The notes below the pieces were generated by a model. It worked only from the letters and a program-made list of their open reading frames with translations. It was not told where the DNA came from and searched no databases. Source: a virus. Taken from it: 54,209 nucleotides of DNA. This document shows, piece after piece, positions 4,101 to 29,464 of the stretch (positions are counted from its first letter, which is position 1; the number at the start of each line of letters is the position of its first letter). The stretch covers positions 1-54,209 of the IMG/VR virus record IMGVR_UViG_3300028800_000117. One strand, written 5' to 3'. The translations under genes and the position numbers were made by a program.

Positions 4101-4352
4101 CTAACCGGCTACAGTGTGCGCCGCAACGTACTCGACCACATCGCGGACCGTGACCAACTTCTCCGCGTCTGCGTCAGAAATCTCAAGGTCGAACTCGCCT
4201 TCCAGTGCGATAACCAACTCGACCACATCCAGAGAATCGGCGTCCAGATCGAGAACAATGTTGGACTCGTCCTTGATCTCCTCAATTCCAACTCCAAGTT
4301 GCTCCGCGATGATGCCGTGGATTCTCTGGGCGATGACTTCCTTGTCAGCCAT
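4101..4352 (-). CDS. acpP: Acyl carrier protein
   Basis: Protein of 83 residues, full length for a type II acyl carrier protein: acidic four-helix pattern with the phosphopantetheine site DADSL, Ser40 being the attachment residue, preceded by the usual NIVLDLDA segment and followed by [12 protein letters not shown]. Bacterial ACPs shuttle acyl chains on a 4'-phosphopantetheine arm for fatty-acid and lipid synthesis and need a host transferase. It sits 13 bases behind dnaB with an excellent GGAGG site. No acyltransferase or synthase gene is adjacent, so it would have to work with host enzymes, or act as a decoy or binding partner. Confidence 0.92.
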
Positions 4353-4365
4353 TAACTACCTCCGT

Positions 4366-5724
4366 TCAGTTTGTGATAGCAAGATTCTCAAACCGTGTGT
4401 ACTTGGCAATAAATGCCAGGTTGGCCGTTCCTGTAGCGCCGTCGCGGTTCTTGGCGACAATCGCCTCGGCGAGCCCTTCCAGGTCAGGATCGTTGTCGTA
4501 CATCTCTGGACGATGCACAAAGACCACAATATCGGCGTCCTGCTCCACCGAACCGGATTCCCGAAGGTCGGACAAAATCGGCCGCTTGTCGCTTCTACCT
4601 TCCACGGCCCGGCTCAACTGCGACAACGCCAGTACCGGGCACTCCAGATCCTTCGCCACGGCCTTCAGTGACCGCGATATGGCCGACACTTCCTGCGTTC
4701 GGTTCTCGAACTTGCCACCGCCGCTCATCAACTGGAGGTAGTCAACAACTGCCAGGTCAAGGCGCCCTTCCTTGCGCTTCAACTGCCGACACTTGGACCG
4801 CAGCCGAATCGGAGTCAGATGGCTGCTGTCGTCGATGAATAGTCGCTTCTCCGCGAGGTCGGAGATGGCCGTGGAGAGCCTGCGATTGTCTTCCTGGTCG
4901 CCCCACCCGTACTGTCGCGTCGAGTACGCGCGTAGGTTGATCTTCGCCATCGACGCCAGTAACCGAGACTCTATCGCCTGTTTGAACATCTCCAGCGAGA
5001 ACAACGCCACCACCAGTTCCTGGTCCTTCGCGAGAATGTTCTGGATGATGTTAAGCGCCAGAGAGGTCTTTCCAACCCCGGGGCGGGCGGCGATCACGAT
5101 CAGATTCGACTTCATCAGACCGCCGATGATATCGTCCAGCTTCTCGTATCCGGTCGGTGTACCCGACATCACAACCGGGTTCAGTATCTTGGACACGTAA
5201 CCGTCAATGCCGCCGGCGTCTCCCACTGAGTCACTAAACGTGGCCCACTTCCGCTCCTGCACGTTCTCAGTCAGGCGCGTGATCGCCAGTTCGGCCCGGG
5301 CCAGTACGTCCTCGGAACTTTCGTTCTGCTCAATGGCTTCAGCGATCGCCGTCTGCGCCACGTTTATCAGACCGCGGAGCATGGCCTTCTCGCGCACAAT
5401 CTTGACGTAGGCGAGAATGCTGGGTCTGTCGGGCACACCGTCCAACAGTGACGACAGGTACGCGACTCCGCCGATGGCTTCGACTTCGTTGTGCCGCGAC
5501 AGTTCCTCGCTGAGAAGAATCATGTCGATCGGCTTGCCAGCTTCGCGGAGCTCTACCATGCGATTCCATATGCGACGGTTGGCATCAAGAGAGAACTCAT
5601 CCCCGGTCAGGAACTCGACCGCTTCGTCGTAATGTGATTGGTCCAGCAAGATCGCCCCCAAGACGGCGCGCTCCGCCTCCAGGTTGGCAGGCGGTCGCTG
5701 ATCGAACTCCATCTCTCTCGACAA
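4366..5724 (-). CDS. dnaB: Replicative DNA helicase, DnaB family
   Basis: Protein of 452 residues, the usual DnaB length. An N-terminal helical primase-binding domain (LEAERAVLGAILLDQ at about 15-29) is followed by a linker and the RecA-like motor with Walker A ARPGVGKTS (about 213-221), SLEM motif, Walker B LAVVDYLQLM (about 324-333), the SQLSR sensor, and a late DADIVVFVHRPE segment with the arginine finger region. The hexamer unwinds the fork. No primase, loader or polymerase was found in the window, so these come from the host or from unseen genes. It is followed closely by the ACP gene. Confidence 0.97.
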   Translation of the reverse strand: MSREMEFDQRPPANLEAERAVLGAILLDQSHYDEAVEFLTGDEFSLDANRRIWNRMVELREAGKPIDMILLSEELSRHNEVEAIGGVAYLSSLLDGVPDRPSILAYVKIVREKAMLRGLINVAQTAIAEAIEQNESSEDVLARAELAITRLTENVQERKWATFSDSVGDAGGIDGYVSKILNPVVMSGTPTGYEKLDDIIGGLMKSNLIVIAARPGVGKTSLALNIIQNILAKDQELVVALFSLEMFKQAIESRLLASMAKINLRAYSTRQYGWGDQEDNRRLSTAISDLAEKRLFIDDSSHLTPIRLRSKCRQLKRKEGRLDLAVVDYLQLMSGGGKFENRTQEVSAISRSLKAVAKDLECPVLALSQLSRAVEGRSDKRPILSDLRESGSVEQDADIVVFVHRPEMYDNDPDLEGLAEAIVAKNRDGATGTANLAFIAKYTRFENLAITN

Positions 5725-13235: not shown

Positions 13236-13264
13236 AATGTAAACCCGCCATGCTTGCATGTCAA
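13236..13264 (-). promoter_or_regulatory. Sigma-70 promoter of recT
   Basis: Consensus -35 TTGACA, exactly 17 bases, -10 TACATT, followed about 56 bases later by the recT start. The spacer begins TGCAAGCATGG, a variant of the recurrent phage box. It immediately follows the terminator of the Ro gene. Confidence 0.85.
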
Positions 13265-13267
13265 GAA

Positions 13268-13303
13268 TTAAAAATGGGCGCTGCAGTTTTCCCGCAACGC
13301 CCA
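13268..13303 (-). terminator. Rho-independent terminator of the Y RNA-Ro operon
   Basis: A ten-base-pair stem (TGGGCGTTGC / GCAGCGCCCA, one G-U) with a nine-base loop is followed on the minus strand by TTTTTAA. It lies just after the Ro stop codon and just before the recT promoter, so it separates the two units. Confidence 0.88.
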
Positions 13304-13316
13304 CGATCCTACTTAG

Positions 13317-14690
13317 TTACTGCGCGGTTCTCTCGTACTCCCTGATGTAGTCGATCACCGCTTCGGAGAACCCGTCGATATGGGTCCACTTGCCATAACC
13401 GATTCCGTTTTTGTAGCTGGCGACATTGACCAGATAGTTTTGGCCCCCGAAGGCGTCCGCTGTAGCAGGATTGCATTTCAGGTCGCAGTCCTGCTCATCT
13501 GTGAACACGATGATTCGGTCGGCCGAACCCTCGGCGGTATGCACGAAATCCATGCACTGCTTCAGGAAAATTCCCCCGCCACCGAGATCAGATGCCGCCT
13601 TATGCACCAGATCACGGAGGGCAAATCCGTTTCTTGCCGGAATCAGCTTGGTCGCGTGAACACGCGTGCCATCGTTTCCAGCCGTACAGTACACAGCCAC
13701 TTCGTGACACACTTCTCTCACCAGCATCGCCAGCGCAGCGGCAGCGTCAACGCGCTGTAACTCGCTTTTGCCGCCGATCTGTCCTCCCATCGAACCGGAA
13801 ACGTCGATGATGAGCACCGTCTTGCCGGGGATCTTCTCCTGCGAAGCCAAGCACTTCATCATCGCCACTTCCAGGTCGGGTTCCAACTTCGGATTGTGAA
13901 CCGCCGCCGACACGAAGCGGAACGGCAAGACGCGGTCAACCTTGACGTTCTGCAAGGACTCACGAATCATGCCAATCGGAACTTCCGCCTGCTGCATATT
14001 GCGCAGGTTCCGCAGTAACGCCAATGCGCCCAACTTCTGTTCGCGCAACAGGCGCTCCCACGATTCCTTCTTGCCTTCGCCGGCCTTTGCCGACAATTCA
14101 ACTTCCCAAGTGTCCGGCGTTACCAACTCGCCAGCGACAAGTCGCTTCCACAACGATTCCTGCTCCGCGTCCTTCGGCTTCGCATGCGACAGGAACAAAA
14201 CATCGCGTAGTTTGATCGCATCGGCGCGGTTGTACTTCGCCAGCGAGTATTCGTTGAACTTCCCGAACGCCCGAGCCAGTCCCTTCTTGACCTGCGCCGA
14301 CAGAGGAACCTTGCCGTCCTTCCAGTAGATCGCCAGGAACTCCGTCAACTCGTCGGGACGCTGGATGACGCGCTCCAACGTGTCGGCAACAAGCAACTTC
14401 GCTTTCTTGTTGCCGCGTGCCAGTTCGCGCACCAGCAGCAGGGGGAGGTGGCGCAACTTCATCTTCTCGCGCGCTTCGACCGCCATGGCCGCTACATCTT
14501 CGGCATCGACGTTCGGAATCAGGTCGGCAATACGCTTGGCGTTGCTCTGACCGTCCTCGTAGAACTCGCCTTCCCATAGCATGTTTGCCATGACGGAACG
14601 GCGAAGTTCCTGAGCGGCGTTGATGACCGCTGCGGTTGCACCTTCGTGAGTTTTGCGGGTATTTACAGCAGGCGTGTTGAGACGTGCCAT
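13317..14690 (-). CDS. rsr: Ro60-type TROVE domain protein (Rsr)
   Basis: Protein of 457 residues with both parts of Ro60 orthologues. Residues 1 to about 285 form the helical-repeat TROVE ring that binds RNA ends and Y RNA (with LRHLPLLLVRELARG, YNRADAIKLRDVLFLSHAKP in outline). From about 289 a von Willebrand A domain follows, with the metal-dependent adhesion motif DVSGSMGG (Asp296, Ser298, Ser300), a Gly-rich loop at 370-373 and TDEQ at 397-400. Ro proteins bind misfolded RNA 3' ends in the ring and Y RNA on the outside, and in bacteria can tether a nuclease (PNPase). The start has an ideal GGAGG site and follows four Y-RNA-like genes on the same strand, so RNA and protein are probably co-expressed. 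Confidence 0.95.
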   Translation of the reverse strand: MARLNTPAVNTRKTHEGATAAVINAAQELRRSVMANMLWEGEFYEDGQSNAKRIADLIPNVDAEDVAAMAVEAREKMKLRHLPLLLVRELARGNKKAKLLVADTLERVIQRPDELTEFLAIYWKDGKVPLSAQVKKGLARAFGKFNEYSLAKYNRADAIKLRDVLFLSHAKPKDAEQESLWKRLVAGELVTPDTWEVELSAKAGEGKKESWERLLREQKLGALALLRNLRNMQQAEVPIGMIRESLQNVKVDRVLPFRFVSAAVHNPKLEPDLEVAMMKCLASQEKIPGKTVLIIDVSGSMGGQIGGKSELQRVDAAAALAMLVREVCHEVAVYCTAGNDGTRVHATKLIPARNGFALRDLVHKAASDLGGGGIFLKQCMDFVHTAEGSADRIIVFTDEQDCDLKCNPATADAFGGQNYLVNVASYKNGIGYGKWTHIDGFSEAVIDYIREYERTAQ

Positions 14691-14723
14691 TGGTGTCCTC
14701 CTTCACAGGACCTGAAATGTTAT

Positions 14724-14794
14724 GACCGGGGGAACAGGCGGCAAGGGCGTCTTTTCTGTGAAGGAGAAGTATCCCTCACCTTCACCACCCGATC
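14724..14794 (-). ncRNA. Y-RNA-like RNA, unit 4 (nearest to Ro)
   Basis: About 71 nt. Closing stem GATCGGG / CCCGGTC (7 bp) flanks the shared internal element, here TGGTGAA (a variant of TGGCGTA) opposite TGTTCC. The upper stem is GGTGAGGG / CCCTTGCC, and above it the conserved ATACTTCT...AGAAAAG forms a small helix. No tRNA-like insertion. It ends 33 bases before the Ro start codon. Confidence 0.75.
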
Positions 14795-14806
14795 TGAAAT
14801 TATTTA

Positions 14807-14932
14807 TCCGAGGGAACAGACGATCACGGTACGTGTTTCTCTTTTGCTCTACCAACTGAGCTACATGCCTTGCGACATGGTTGGATTTGAACCAACGACA
14901 TAAAGAAGTAACCGAAACCTACGCCACTCGGA
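14807..14932 (-). ncRNA. yrlA: YrlA-type Y RNA with tRNA mimic, unit 3
   Basis: About 126 nt. Closing stem TCCGAG / CTCGGA, then the shared element TGGCGTA / TGTTCC, then upper stem GGTTTCGGT / ACCGTGATC (8 of 9 pairs). The interior is a circularly permuted tRNA: a six-pair anticodon-stem-like helix TTCTTT / AAAGAG, a T-arm GTTGG-TTCAAAT-CCAAC, an acceptor-like hairpin CATGTC-GCAA-GGCATG with a GNRA loop in place of free ends, then TA and a canonical D-arm GCTC-AGTTGGTA-GAGC with G18-G19. Bacterial YrlA RNAs are known to carry such a tRNA-like module next to a Ro-binding stem. It lies upstream of a Ro gene on the same strand. Confidence 0.9.
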
Positions 14933-14939
14933 AGGAGAT

Positions 14940-15034
14940 CACTTCGAGGAACAGGCGACTAGAGTAGCTTGCTGGGGTTTCACCAGCATCCTTTTCAGCC
15001 GAAAGAAGTAACCCTAATCTACGCCATCGAAGCG
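14940..15034 (-). ncRNA. Y-RNA-like RNA, unit 2
   Basis: About 95 nt. Closing stem CGCTTCGA / TCGAAGTG (8 bp, one wobble), shared TGGCGTA / TGTTCC element, upper stem GATTAGGGT / ACTCTAGTC (9 bp with wobbles), then a conserved TTACTTCT segment and a hairpin with stem GCTGG / CCAGC and a 7-base loop TGAAACC that resembles a degenerate T-arm. There is no D-arm or acceptor hairpin, so this is a partial tRNA mimic at most. Confidence 0.75.
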
Positions 15035-15041
15035 AAACTTT

Positions 15042-15108
15042 TTGGCGGGAACAAACGCATGGAGTGTTTTCTGTTCAAGAGAAGTATCTCCATGCTACGC
15101 CACGCCAG
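15042..15108 (-). ncRNA. Y-RNA-like RNA, unit 1 (promoter-proximal)
   Basis: About 67 nt. Closing stem TGGCG / CGCCA, shared element TGGCGTA / TGTTCC, upper stem GCATGGAG / CTCCATGC (8 perfect pairs) and a loop with ATACTTCT...AGAAAAC that can form a small TTCT/AGAA helix. The predicted transcription start of the upstream promoter falls within a few bases of its 5' end. Confidence 0.75.
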
Positions 15109-15113
15109 AACTG

Positions 15114-15142
15114 AAATTACACGCTTGCAATTTTTATGTCAA
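15114..15142 (-). promoter_or_regulatory. Strong sigma-70 promoter of the Y RNA-Ro operon
   Basis: Perfect -35 TTGACA, 17-base spacer and -10 TAATTT. The spacer contains TTGCAAGCGTG, the recurrent phage box. Transcription would start at about the 5' end of the first Y-RNA-like unit. Confidence 0.85.
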
Positions 15143-15167
15143 GGCAAAATTTAGTTGCCCGCAATGC

Positions 15168-15196
15168 TTGCATGAAAAGAAGGGCGTCCATACACT
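15168..15196 (+). promoter_or_regulatory. Divergent promoter for the plus-strand regulator genes
   Basis: TTGCAT, 17 bases, TACACT, directed to the right. The predicted start falls at or beside the ATG of the first plus-strand gene, which has no ribosome site, so a leaderless mRNA is likely. A GCTTGCAT box overlaps the -35. Confidence 0.55.
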
Positions 15197-16260: not shown

Positions 16261-17022
16261 TTACTGGTGACGCGGCACTTTGACGGTCAGCCACTCTCGT
16301 TCCTTCGTGAATACCGGCGGTTCAACCACAGCCCAATCGTCATGCGGCGGGATGTCGATGATGCCGACCTTTGTTTGCTTCGGTCCACCGGGCACTGGAA
16401 CCTTGATAACTGCAGCACCGTGCTTGAAGCGCACTGGATGATTGTTCCAGTTGTCGCCGTGCTCGTAAATCTTGTCGTGCATCTGTTCGACAGGCACCTT
16501 GTGCAGTTCGTTGTGTGAGCAGTAGTGCTGTGCCAGCATGGACACCGAGTTACGAACTGCGTCCTTCTGCCGGGCGACGAAGTAGTTCTCTACTTCGACT
16601 GGATCGGGAATCTGGAACACGCGGGAATCGAAGTGCGCTGGCTTCTTGTCCCAACCGAGAAAGCGAACAGCCTGATTAAACGCTGCGGTTGCCAGTGACG
16701 CACTGATCGAGCACAGCTTCTGCATGTTGTTATCGAACCATGCCGCCGTGTCGATCTTGGCGAAATCGGTCAGTAACACCGAAACTTCATCGGACTGGAC
16801 GTAAGCCAGTTGCGCTCCGGCGCACTCCTGACAGAGCGCCATCGCCACTTCGTCCATCGCCTTCATTAAGCATATGTCGTAGGGCCGTTCCAACCCACGA
16901 GTCCACGTATGAAAGGCCCGGCCATCGACTCGGATGATTGTGTAACTGCGGCGGGGAAGAAGGATTCGGTAGCGGTCTTCGTACTGCGCCTTCATGCGCA
17001 GGTCAATCTCTGTTGTGCTCAT
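16261..17022 (-). CDS. Thg1-like protein (3'-5' RNA polymerase / tRNA repair)
   Basis: Protein of 253 residues starting MSTTEIDLRMKAQYEDRY. Thg1-family signatures are clear: IIRVDGRAFHTWTRGLERPYD (about 29-49, metal ligand Asp33) and AYVQSDEVSVLL (about 73-84, Asp78 and Glu79), then the WFDNNMQKLCSISASLATAAFN region in outline. Thg1 adds the -1 guanosine to tRNA-His in eukaryotes; bacterial, archaeal and phage Thg1-like proteins add nucleotides in the 3'-5' direction to repair 5'-truncated tRNAs. The ATG is only seven or so bases behind a -10 box, so the mRNA is probably leaderless. Together with the Ro/Y RNA unit and the RNA ligase this points to RNA repair. Confidence 0.93.
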   Translation of the reverse strand: MSTTEIDLRMKAQYEDRYRILLPRRSYTIIRVDGRAFHTWTRGLERPYDICLMKAMDEVAMALCQECAGAQLAYVQSDEVSVLLTDFAKIDTAAWFDNNMQKLCSISASLATAAFNQAVRFLGWDKKPAHFDSRVFQIPDPVEVENYFVARQKDAVRNSVSMLAQHYCSHNELHKVPVEQMHDKIYEHGDNWNNHPVRFKHGAAVIKVPVPGGPKQTKVGIIDIPPHDDWAVVEPPVFTKEREWLTVKVPRHQ

Positions 17023-17029
17023 GCTTGCT

Positions 17030-17059
17030 TTTATAAATGCAAGCGTGACAGTTATGCAA
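17030..17059 (-). promoter_or_regulatory. Promoter of the Thg1-like gene
   Basis: TTGCAT, 18 bases, TATAAA. Two copies of the box CACGCTTGCAT lie in tandem, one giving the -35 and one in the spacer. The -10 is so close to the ATG that a leaderless or nearly leaderless transcript is expected. Confidence 0.75.
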
Positions 17060-17065
17060 GCGTGT

Positions 17066-17275
17066 TTATTTCGGTTTGCTGACTCGCGACAAAATGCAGT
17101 GCTTGAACTGCTCGCAGAGGTAAACTCCGGTTTCAACGCTGATACCGTTGTCCAGAGCGTGCGGTTCGCTGTCGCCATGAACGCTATAAATTACAAGAAC
17201 CTCACTGATCGTGTCGGCCTTCCCGGCCAAGTCGGCCGCAACTTCAACGATGCTGTCAACCTGCGTCCGTTCCAC
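17066..17275 (-). CDS. Hypothetical protein after the giant ejection protein
   Basis: Protein of 69 residues beginning MERTQVDSIVEVAADLAGK. Its ATG shares a base with the stop of the 2158-residue gene, so it is translated by coupling as the last gene of the ejection operon. It has short strands and helices (SEVLVIYSVHGD, GVYLCEQFKHCILSR); no family recognised. Confidence 0.6.
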   Translation of the reverse strand: MERTQVDSIVEVAADLAGKADTISEVLVIYSVHGDSEPHALDNGISVETGVYLCEQFKHCILSRVSKPK

Positions 17276-28428: not shown

Positions 28429-29091
28429 TTAGAAATCCTTGGTCTTTAGTTTAACGATTAGGCGAGCGCCCTTCTTGTCGAAGAGTGGTTCCGTTGTTCG
28501 CCCGACTAGTCCCTCGGCCTTTGCTTTTCCGTCGTTGAGCTTCGACTGGAATCCAGCACGCACTATCGCGGTTGCATCTTCCAGCGTCATCTCCCCGACG
28601 AATGGCACCACGTCCAATCCGATCTTGGACGCCACGTCATTGACGTTCTCTTGCGAGAGCCACCAGCCACCAAGTTTGGAATTGACCGTGTCCACCACAA
28701 ACACATCGAACACGATAATTTTCTTGGTTGGCGAATAGTCGCCGCCCTTCTGAATCCCGGCCCCGTATCCCTCGCCGTAAATGATGACGTGATTCTCTGG
28801 AAACACTTCAAACAACTTTGCGGCGCTCACGTTCTCGTAGAGCCACTTGATCAGGTCAGCATGGATTTGTGCGTTGTCGGTCTTTCCGCCAAAGGTCAGA
28901 GCTTTAGCGTATTCTCCGATAGCGTGAAACGCCGGACGCCAGATTACGCGAATGTTCGTGCCGTCGATCTTCTCCGTCCACTGCCAAGTCTTGATGAGGG
29001 CGTAGGTGCGATTCTTGAGCACCAGTTCGGGCTTGAGGCGATGCGTCTGCTCGTCTCGCTCGTATAGCGTTTCTATTTTGTGATATTCCAT
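28429..29091 (-). CDS. RNA ligase, Rnl2-like family
   Basis: Protein of 220 residues starting MEYHKIETLYERD. The covalent nucleotidyltransferase motif I is TEKIDGTNIR with Lys41 as the adenylation site (KxDG), followed by a motif III-like IIYGEGYGAG, motif IIIa/IV-like KIIVFDVFVVD and EGLVGR, and motif V-like ARLIVKLKTKDF. This is the minimal size of the RNA_ligase domain, without extra C-terminal part. Enzymes of this class seal nicks in RNA, often tRNA broken by host anticodon nucleases. It has its own promoter of the phage type, a few kb upstream of the Thg1-like and Ro genes. Confidence 0.88.
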   Translation of the reverse strand: MEYHKIETLYERDEQTHRLKPELVLKNRTYALIKTWQWTEKIDGTNIRVIWRPAFHAIGEYAKALTFGGKTDNAQIHADLIKWLYENVSAAKLFEVFPENHVIIYGEGYGAGIQKGGDYSPTKKIIVFDVFVVDTVNSKLGGWWLSQENVNDVASKIGLDVVPFVGEMTLEDATAIVRAGFQSKLNDGKAKAEGLVGRTTEPLFDKKGARLIVKLKTKDF

Positions 29092-29116
29092 GTTCGTGTC
29101 GATGCTTGCAATGGGA

Positions 29117-29145
29117 AATGTACCCGACGGCGGGAAATTATGCAA
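29117..29145 (-). promoter_or_regulatory. Promoter of the RNA ligase operon
   Basis: TTGCAT, 17 bases, TACATT. The -35 is part of the box CACGCTTGCAT; a second inverted copy (TTGCAAGCAT) lies just after the -10. The RNA ligase ATG is about 26 bases beyond the -10. Confidence 0.75.
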
Positions 29146-29152
29146 GCGTGAA

Positions 29153-29464
29153 TTATCGGACGGAATAAATGTAGCCAGCAACGCCACTGTTGGCGCAATG
29201 CAGATAGAACTTCGTCCCATCCCACAGCGGGTCTTGCCAAACAACCAGCACCGGAGAAGCGCCGGATGTGGTGATCTGAATGACGGCAAACGACGGGTTG
29301 TAACCGAGGTTGTGCGTGACCGAGAAATTCCCGCTGCTGCTGGTGAACGGGGTCTTTACAACCGACAGCGTGACATTCAACTCCGGGTCAACCGTGATCG
29401 CGCCCTTGAGTCGCCGGACGACCGCGTATATCTGCTGGAAGAAGTTCTGGTCGTCACTCGCCAT
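29153..29464 (-). CDS. Beta-rich virion-associated protein
   Basis: Protein of 103 residues starting MASDDQNFFQQIYAVVRRL, then mostly strands (VTHNLGYNPSFAVIQITTSG, SPVLVVWQDPLWDG, GVAGYIYSVR). The pattern, a short helix then a beta-sandwich-like part with aromatic turns, resembles tail-fibre or fibre-tip adaptors. Downstream of nozzle genes in the virion operon. Function by context only. Confidence 0.55.
   Translation of the reverse strand: MASDDQNFFQQIYAVVRRLKGAITVDPELNVTLSVVKTPFTSSSGNFSVTHNLGYNPSFAVIQITTSGASPVLVVWQDPLWDGTKFYLHCANSGVAGYIYSVR

What the first reader, a model, noticed from the sequence alone, without database searches (positions are those of the whole stretch)
13268..15142. 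Phage-encoded Ro/TROVE protein behind four tandem Y-RNA-like genes
Directly upstream of a full-length Ro60-type gene (TROVE plus vWA with DxSxS) there are four consecutive units on the same strand, 67 to 126 nt each, that share the same layout: a lower stem, then TGGCGTA (TGGTGAA in unit 4) on the 5' side and TGTTCC on the 3' side, then an upper stem, then an ACTTCT...AGAA segment. The stem sequences differ between units while pairing is kept, which is compensatory change expected for conserved RNA structure. A consensus sigma-70 promoter (TTGACA-17-TAATTT) begins at unit 1 and a strong terminator follows Ro, so RNAs and protein form one transcription unit. Known bacterial systems usually have one or two Y RNAs; an array of four in a phage is unusual.
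Basis: partly seen in the sequence, partly recalled or inferred. Interest (0 to 1): 0.95.

Follow-up and report, generated by a model that had tools for sequence, protein, structure and literature searches.

The report
Phage Ro protein with four Y RNAs
This virus of bacteria carries a Ro60-type RNA-binding protein and, just in front of it, four small Y RNA genes, one of which imitates a transfer RNA; such sets turn out to be common in phages, so it is a solid new example of a known kind rather than an oddity.

Summary
Four consecutive RNA units lie on the minus strand directly upstream of a full-length Ro60-type gene. A covariance model built from short units of related Ro loci finds exactly these four places in the 54-kb window; units 2 and 3 were not used to build it. 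Across 148 units in related loci, every one of 16 base pairs shows compensatory changes, including a two-pair helix behind a bulged U.

Anatomy: all four share a Ro-type stem and differ at the tip. Units 1 and 4 are minimal. Unit 2 carries one extra hairpin. Unit 3 carries a complete permuted tRNA-like module (T-arm, capped acceptor stem, D-arm) and matches Rfam YrlA at 48.8 bits, below its cut-off of 69.

The claim that four is unusual fails: related loci carry 1 to 8 units, and one phage has 11. Phage Ro proteins and phage Y RNAs were already known. In 100 Acidobacteriaceae genomes the RNA model hits 20 of 24 Ro-positive and 0 of 76 Ro-negative genomes.

Most likely function: a phage Ro RNP in which the Y RNAs gate and tether Ro. 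Binding, expression and partners are untested. In passing: crAss-like phages carry Y-stem/tRNA chimeras in unpermuted tRNA order.

The parts
15114..15142 (-). Promoter-like sequence TTGACA-17-TAATTT in front of unit 1 (good -35, weak -10)
   Evidence: sequence; not listed by the promoter scan
15158..15174 (-). CATGCAAGCATTGCGGG, near-identical copy of the motif at 13260-13244 in front of the next operon (recT); possible shared regulatory site
15043..15107 (-). Y RNA unit 1, minimal (Ro-type stem, small apical hairpin TTCT-7nt-AGAA)
   Evidence: R1 68.2 bits, E 3e-15 (in training set); fold z -3.2
14939..15035 (-). Y RNA unit 2, intermediate: Ro-type stem plus an extra hairpin GCTGG-TGAAACC-CCAGC at 14987-14971
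   Evidence: R1 57.1 bits, E 4e-12, not in training set; fold z -2.0
14807..14932 (-). Y RNA unit 3, tRNA mimic of YrlA type
   Evidence: R1 48.1 bits, E 1e-9, not in training set; Rfam YrlA RF02553 48.8 bits, E 7e-10, cut-off 69; fold z -2.2
14880..14896 (-). T-arm of unit 3, GTTGG-TTCAAAT-CCAAC
   Evidence: sequence, YrlA alignment, predicted fold
14864..14879 (-). Acceptor-stem analogue of unit 3 capped by a GCAA tetraloop, CATGTC-GCAA-GGCATG
14846..14861 (-). D-arm of unit 3, GCTC-AGTTGGTA-GAGC
14724..14794 (-). Y RNA unit 4, minimal
   Evidence: R1 65.0 bits, E 3e-14 (in training set); fold z -2.1
13317..14690 (-). Ro60/Rsr-type protein, 457 aa (TROVE HEAT-repeat ring plus vWA with DxSxS)
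   Evidence: Pfam TROVE 9e-14, vWA_Ro60 7e-7; PHROG 850 RNA-binding protein 5e-45; AlphaFold2 pLDDT 87.5; Foldseek: phage phiLo Ro60, Xenopus Ro-RNA 1yvp, D. radiodurans Rsr 2nvo
13274..13304 (-). Intrinsic terminator after the Ro gene
   Evidence: 13 pairs, 8 G-C, T tail

Best explanation
It is a phage-encoded Ro ribonucleoprotein locus: a Ro60/Rsr-type ring protein and four Y RNAs, probably co-transcribed and cut apart. Each Y RNA is predicted to be held by Ro through its lower stem: a helix, a bulged U, two pairs, then the YGWA / UGUU internal loop. The tips differ, so different members would do different things. The minimal ones (units 1 and 4) would mainly occupy and gate the outer surface of Ro. 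The tRNA mimic (unit 3) would tether Ro to a host partner that recognises tRNA-like folds or to a nuclease such as PNPase, as in the Deinococcus/Salmonella complex. The net effect during infection would be to direct the decay, or the sparing and repair, of structured or damaged RNA. Shown here: the RNA family, its base pairing, its modular tips, its linkage to Ro and the Ro fold. Inferred: binding to Ro, processing, tethering and the benefit to the phage. The confidence given is for the identity (Ro plus Y RNAs); for the gate/tether function alone it is about 0.5.
For: R1 finds all four units and nothing else in the window. In 68 sources it finds 179 places at E<=1, every one on the Ro strand. 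Covariation on 148 units: 92.5% of cells paired, all 16 pairs with double changes, score 0.81 against 0.22 in shuffles and at most 0.18 in slid controls. Motif-only test. In 100 Acidobacteriaceae genomes, 20 of 24 Ro+ and 0 of 76 Ro- genomes have R1 hits, Fisher p 2e-17. A blind scan of IMG/VR for the 5' motif returned 224 stretches, 127 with a Ro gene; 98 of 120 stretches with a full unit have Ro, against 29 of 104 without. YrlA match of unit 3. Ro fold. The tether/PNPase model and the tRNA-enzyme modification of YrlA are literature: PMC8394870, PMC7790460.
Against: No expression or binding data for this phage. The record encodes neither PNPase nor RtcB, so tethering would need host enzymes. 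The -10 box is poor. R1 was partly built from hits that were chosen for pairing, so its covariation figures lean towards the structure; the motif-only test does not. The host is unknown.
Confidence: 0.9

Rival explanations
1. The RNAs are Y RNAs, but the locus serves counter-defence and tRNA repair: the tRNA mimic is a decoy or competitive inhibitor of host anticodon nucleases, and Ro holds broken tRNAs for the phage's own RNA ligase and Thg1-like enzyme.
For: The same genome encodes an RNA ligase (phrog_548, E 1e-23, 28429-29289) and a Thg1-type enzyme (E 9e-28, 16261-17178). The authors of PMC7790460 suggest that YrlA could competitively inhibit an anticodon nuclease.
Against: The mimic has no anticodon loop. 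Thg1 was found clearly in only 2 of 24 Ro virus records and this ligase family in 5 of 24, so the partnership is not general.
Confidence: 0.3
2. The conserved stems are a cis-acting leader of the Ro mRNA (autoregulation or processing signals) rather than free small RNAs.
For: The array is in the Ro 5' leader, only 33 nt from the start codon.
Against: In crAss-like phages the units lie downstream of Ro, in other loci 0.1-2.5 kb away, and some Acidobacteriaceae hits lie on other contigs or 77 kb from Ro. Unit 3 is a full tRNA mimic.
Confidence: 0.06
3. Chance inverted repeats or transcription terminators.
For: Single fold z-scores are modest (about -2 to -3).
Against: Strand specificity (70 to 2), covariation and Ro linkage; no U tracts follow the units.
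Confidence: 0.01

Closest known systems
YrlA / bacterial Y RNAs with Rsr (Salmonella rsr-yrlBA-rtcBA; Chen et al. 2014; Rfam RF02553)
   Same: Y RNAs encoded next to a Ro60 orthologue, stem joining both ends, and in unit 3 the permuted tRNA-like module with T-arm, capped acceptor stem and D-arm
   Different: Only unit 3 matches the YrlA model, below its cut-off; the Ro-type loop is UGGYGWA/UGUUCC; units 1, 2 and 4 lack the tRNA module; no rtcB in the record
Deinococcus radiodurans Rsr-Y RNA-PNPase complex (RYPER)
   Same: Ro60-type ring protein plus Y RNA with a proposed gating/tethering role
   Different: The phage record has no PNPase of its own; tethering not tested
Ro60 of Thermus phage phiLo (PDB 9l5y, 9kop)
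   Same: Phage-encoded Ro; best structural match of the window protein
   Different: 24% identity; its RNAs were not examined here
Vertebrate Ro60-Y RNA
   Same: Ring with vWA domain (1yvp); RNA with a helix, one bulged nucleotide and an asymmetric internal loop at the Ro site (PMC4726728)
   Different: Different sequence; bulged U instead of C; no tRNA mimic in vertebrates (own knowledge)

Membership tests
Ro60/Rsr protein | TROVE domain | tested here: met
   PF05731 51.9 bits, cut-off 23; the best stretch covers only residues 189-264, but the fold match covers the protein
Ro60/Rsr protein | vWA domain with DxSxS metal-ion site | tested here: met
   PF25045 29.8 bits, cut-off 27.7; D296, S298, S300, D398 invariant in 34 sequences
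Ro60/Rsr protein | HEAT-repeat ring fold | tested here: met
   AlphaFold2 pLDDT 87.5; Foldseek E 6e-19 to phage Ro, 6e-15 to 1yvp, 8e-13 to 2nvo
Ro60/Rsr protein | binds Y RNA and misfolded RNA ends | not testable with these tools
   needs binding assays
Y RNA (Ro-associated, in general) | encoded near Ro and dependent on its presence | tested here: met
   20/24 Ro+ and 0/76 Ro- genomes; 56 of the Ro loci searched
Y RNA (Ro-associated, in general) | conserved stem joining 5' and 3' ends, with bulge and internal loop | tested here: met
   covariation incl. GG/CC to AG/CU pairs behind the bulged U
Y RNA (Ro-associated, in general) | bound by Ro | not testable with these tools
   no experiment
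YrlA (RF02553) | reaches Rfam gathering score 69 | tested here: not met
   unit 3 48.8 bits, other units none; no unit in 19 related loci reaches it
YrlA (RF02553) | permuted tRNA-like module | tested here: met
   unit 3 only: T-arm, capped acceptor stem, D-arm; absent from units 1, 2, 4
YrlA (RF02553) | modified by tRNA enzymes (TruB, DusA) | not testable with these tools
   needs RNA modification mapping
rsr-yrl-rtcBA RNA repair operon | RtcB in the same operon | tested here: not met
   no RtcB in the record, which may be a fragment
RYPER complex | Ro tethered to PNPase by Y RNA | not testable with these tools
   no PNPase domain in the record; a host enzyme would be needed

The most novel reading that the evidence does not exclude
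Phage and Acidobacteriaceae Ro loci carry a modular Y RNA system not captured by Rfam's cut-off: one Ro-binding stem reused in arrays of up to 11 RNAs whose tips range from nothing, through single arms, to full tRNA mimics and (in Acidobacteriaceae) a separate ~173-nt module. The same stem is also grafted, unpermuted, into the anticodon position of tRNA-like RNAs in crAss-like phages. A phage would thus load one Ro ring with interchangeable adaptors.
Probability: 0.35. Interest if true: 0.75.

Novelty: new member of a known kind. Interest (0 to 1): 0.55.

Why it matters
What phages gain from Ro and Y RNAs is not known. This locus shows minimal and tRNA-mimic Y RNAs side by side behind one Ro gene, which separates the Ro-binding part from the effector part by natural design. 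The covariance model and the stem motif make such RNAs findable in many genomes, where they are now missed or annotated as tRNAs, and they point to cultured phages (Caulobacter phage CcrColossus, Xanthomonas phage Olaya, crAss001) in which the question can be tested.

Tried and rejected
Rfam at gathering threshold: no hit in the window. ARAGORN: no tRNA. Listeria phage: PMC12282133 proposes that abundant transcripts upstream of a Ro-like gene are Y RNAs; in the relative P100 the R1 model finds nothing there, Rfam's ROOL family scores 86 bits, cut-off 99, and the protein is DUF2828/DUF7788, so that data set was not used as support. Thg1 or RNA ligase as a regular partner of phage Ro: not general. 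Original papers on bacterial Y RNAs: Chen 2014 is not held in the library, so its content is cited from other papers or marked as own knowledge.

Full report
What was checked. The window is a 54,209-b virus record with phage portal, major head, tail-fibre, RecT and DnaB genes. On the minus strand, between a divergent gene region and the Ro gene, lie four RNA-like units at 15107-15043, 15035-14939, 14932-14807 and 14794-14724, only 6-12 nt apart, with the Ro start codon 33 nt further on.

Is it more than chance? Ro relatives were fetched from IMG/VR (39 loci), phage records (66 records at E<=1e-5; fourteen stretches read) and genomes (14 loci, mostly Acidobacteriota). A search for the two sequence motifs alone, with no pairing asked, gave 70 places on the Ro strand and 2 on the other. 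Of the 70, 55 have at least 4 contiguous pairs next to the motifs, where shuffled partners give 7.2 on average and never more than 16. A covariance model (R1) was built from 35 short units. It finds 179 places in 68 sources, all on the Ro strand, and in the window exactly the four units. Units 2 and 3 were not used for building, and score 57.1 and 48.1 bits. On 148 aligned units all 16 pairs show changes on both sides and 92.5% of cells pair; shuffled and slid controls are far lower. This alignment is fitted to the model, so the motif-only test is the cleaner one.

Refined structure. TGG/TTCC is not a plain loop. The GG pairs with the CC of TGTTCC behind a bulged U: 131 units have G-C and 17 have A-U at the first of these pairs. 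The Ro-type site is thus a helix, one bulged U, two pairs, then an asymmetric loop YGWA against CGNNUGUU. Vertebrate Ro sites are described as a seven-pair helix with one bulged C and a three-nucleotide bulge opposite (PMC4726728). This is a likeness in layout, not in sequence.

Modularity. Unit 3 contains a T-arm, an acceptor-stem analogue capped by GCAA and a D-arm, in the permuted order of YrlA. Rfam YrlA scores 48.8 bits, E 7e-10, under the cut-off of 69. Units 1 and 4 end in a small hairpin. Unit 2 adds one hairpin with a 7-nt loop TGAAACC, which could fold as a T-loop (own knowledge, untested). Across 161 units at 56 loci a simple arm search classed 40 as full tRNA mimics, 24 with a T-arm only and 97 with neither; the last class includes long units that the search cannot resolve. 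Many arrays are mixed.

Is four unusual? No. Units per locus: one at 10 loci, two at 18, three at 12, four at 8, five at 4, six at 2, seven at 1 (CcrColossus) and eight at 1 (an Acidobacteriaceae MAG). These are lower bounds because flanks were limited to 3 kb. One virus record (G017) has eleven.

Linkage to Ro. In 100 Acidobacteriaceae genomes 24 have Ro. R1 hits 20 of these and none of the 76 others, p 2e-17. A scan of IMG/VR with only a 22-nt pattern of the 5' half gave 224 stretches, of which 127 contain a Ro gene. Of the stretches in which a complete unit is found, 98 of 120 have Ro, and 180 of 186 units at Ro loci lie on its strand.

The protein. Pfam TROVE and Ro60-vWA are above their cut-offs, and PHROG 850 covers it end to end. 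The AlphaFold2 model (pLDDT 87.5) matches Ro60 of Thermus phage phiLo, Xenopus Ro with RNA, human Ro60 and Deinococcus Rsr.

Mechanism. The best-supported view is a Ro RNP in which Y RNAs cover and gate the ring and, through the tRNA-like tip, tether a partner. In Deinococcus and Salmonella that partner is PNPase, and YrlA is a substrate of TruB and DusA (PMC8394870; PMC7790460; PMC9879122). The record has no PNPase or RtcB, so a host partner would be needed. A role in tRNA damage is the main rival: the same genome has an RNA ligase and a Thg1-type enzyme, but few other Ro phages do. Identity as Ro plus Y RNAs is strongly supported (0.9); the tether/gate function is an inference I would put near 0.5.

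Known or new. Phage Ro proteins are documented (PMC7824862; PMC7765460; crAss001, PMC8375218; PDB 9l5y), and Y RNAs in phages have been reported (PMC12282133 and PMC7765460, citing Chen 2014 and Sim and Wolin 2018). From own knowledge, the 2014 survey found likely Y RNAs near Ro60 in over 250 bacterial and phage species, at least one per species with a tRNA-like domain. So this locus is a new member of a known kind. What I did not find catalogued is the stem family outside Rfam's threshold, the long mixed arrays, a ~173-nt Acidobacteriaceae form and the crAss chimeras; the literature at hand was limited to open papers.

Noticed in passing
L050 (crAss001, MH675552) 4624-4767 and 4879-5020; L048 4605-4750 and 4860-5001; L047 4539-4680: Downstream of Ro in crAss-like phages there are tRNA-like RNAs in normal tRNA order (acceptor stem, D-arm, T-arm) whose anticodon arm is replaced by the Y stem, with the lower Y stem capped by a tetraloop: a circular permutation of YrlA. 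Rfam tRNA 46.6 bits with an 82-nt insert; upper-stem pairs are kept with changes between crAss001 and cr106_1. Not annotated in the records.
   Followed up: partly
L057 1661-1833, L065 1612-1784, L064 1732-1903, L067 1747-1908, L055 2024-2189: Five Acidobacteriaceae Ro loci carry a ~165-173-nt RNA with the Y stem and a different, conserved, non-tRNA branched tip.
   Followed up: partly
L072 34073-34624 (Listeria phage P100): The abundant non-coding transcripts near a Ro-like gene that PMC12282133 suggests may be Y RNAs are more likely a ROOL RNA (86 bits, cut-off 99); the protein is DUF2828/DUF7788. The same paper finds that protein in purified virions.
   Followed up: partly
window 28429-29289 (-) and 16261-17178 (-): The phage encodes an RNA ligase (phrog_548) and a Thg1-type tRNA(His) guanylyltransferase-like enzyme.
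   Followed up: partly
window 13244-13260 (-) and 15158-15174 (-): A 17-b motif CATGCAAGCATNGCGGG, with an inverted repeat ATGC-AA-GCAT, stands in front of both recT and the Y RNA array; possible operator or phage promoter element.
   Followed up: partly
L042 2831-2898, L041 2793-2867, L045 2173-2240: Phage records annotate tRNA-Thr, tRNA-Ser and tRNA-Gln at or beside Y RNA units; at least L042 (Xanthomonas phage 10KY502B) overlaps a Y unit, so it is probably a mis-annotated tRNA mimic.
   Followed up: partly
L025 1413-1703, L041 6369-6714, L044 6791-7046: Permuted (two-piece) tmRNA genes lie near phage Ro loci.
   Followed up: no
G087:C11:51198-51274, G060:C6:181305-181380: Single Y-type RNAs in Acidobacteriaceae genomes lie far from Ro (77 kb away, or on another contig).
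   Followed up: no
window 4101-4352 (-) and 34.7-41.2 kb (-): An acyl carrier protein gene and an island of sugar-transferase-like, methyltransferase-like and radical-SAM genes (the latter by reading translations, and PHROG).
   Followed up: no
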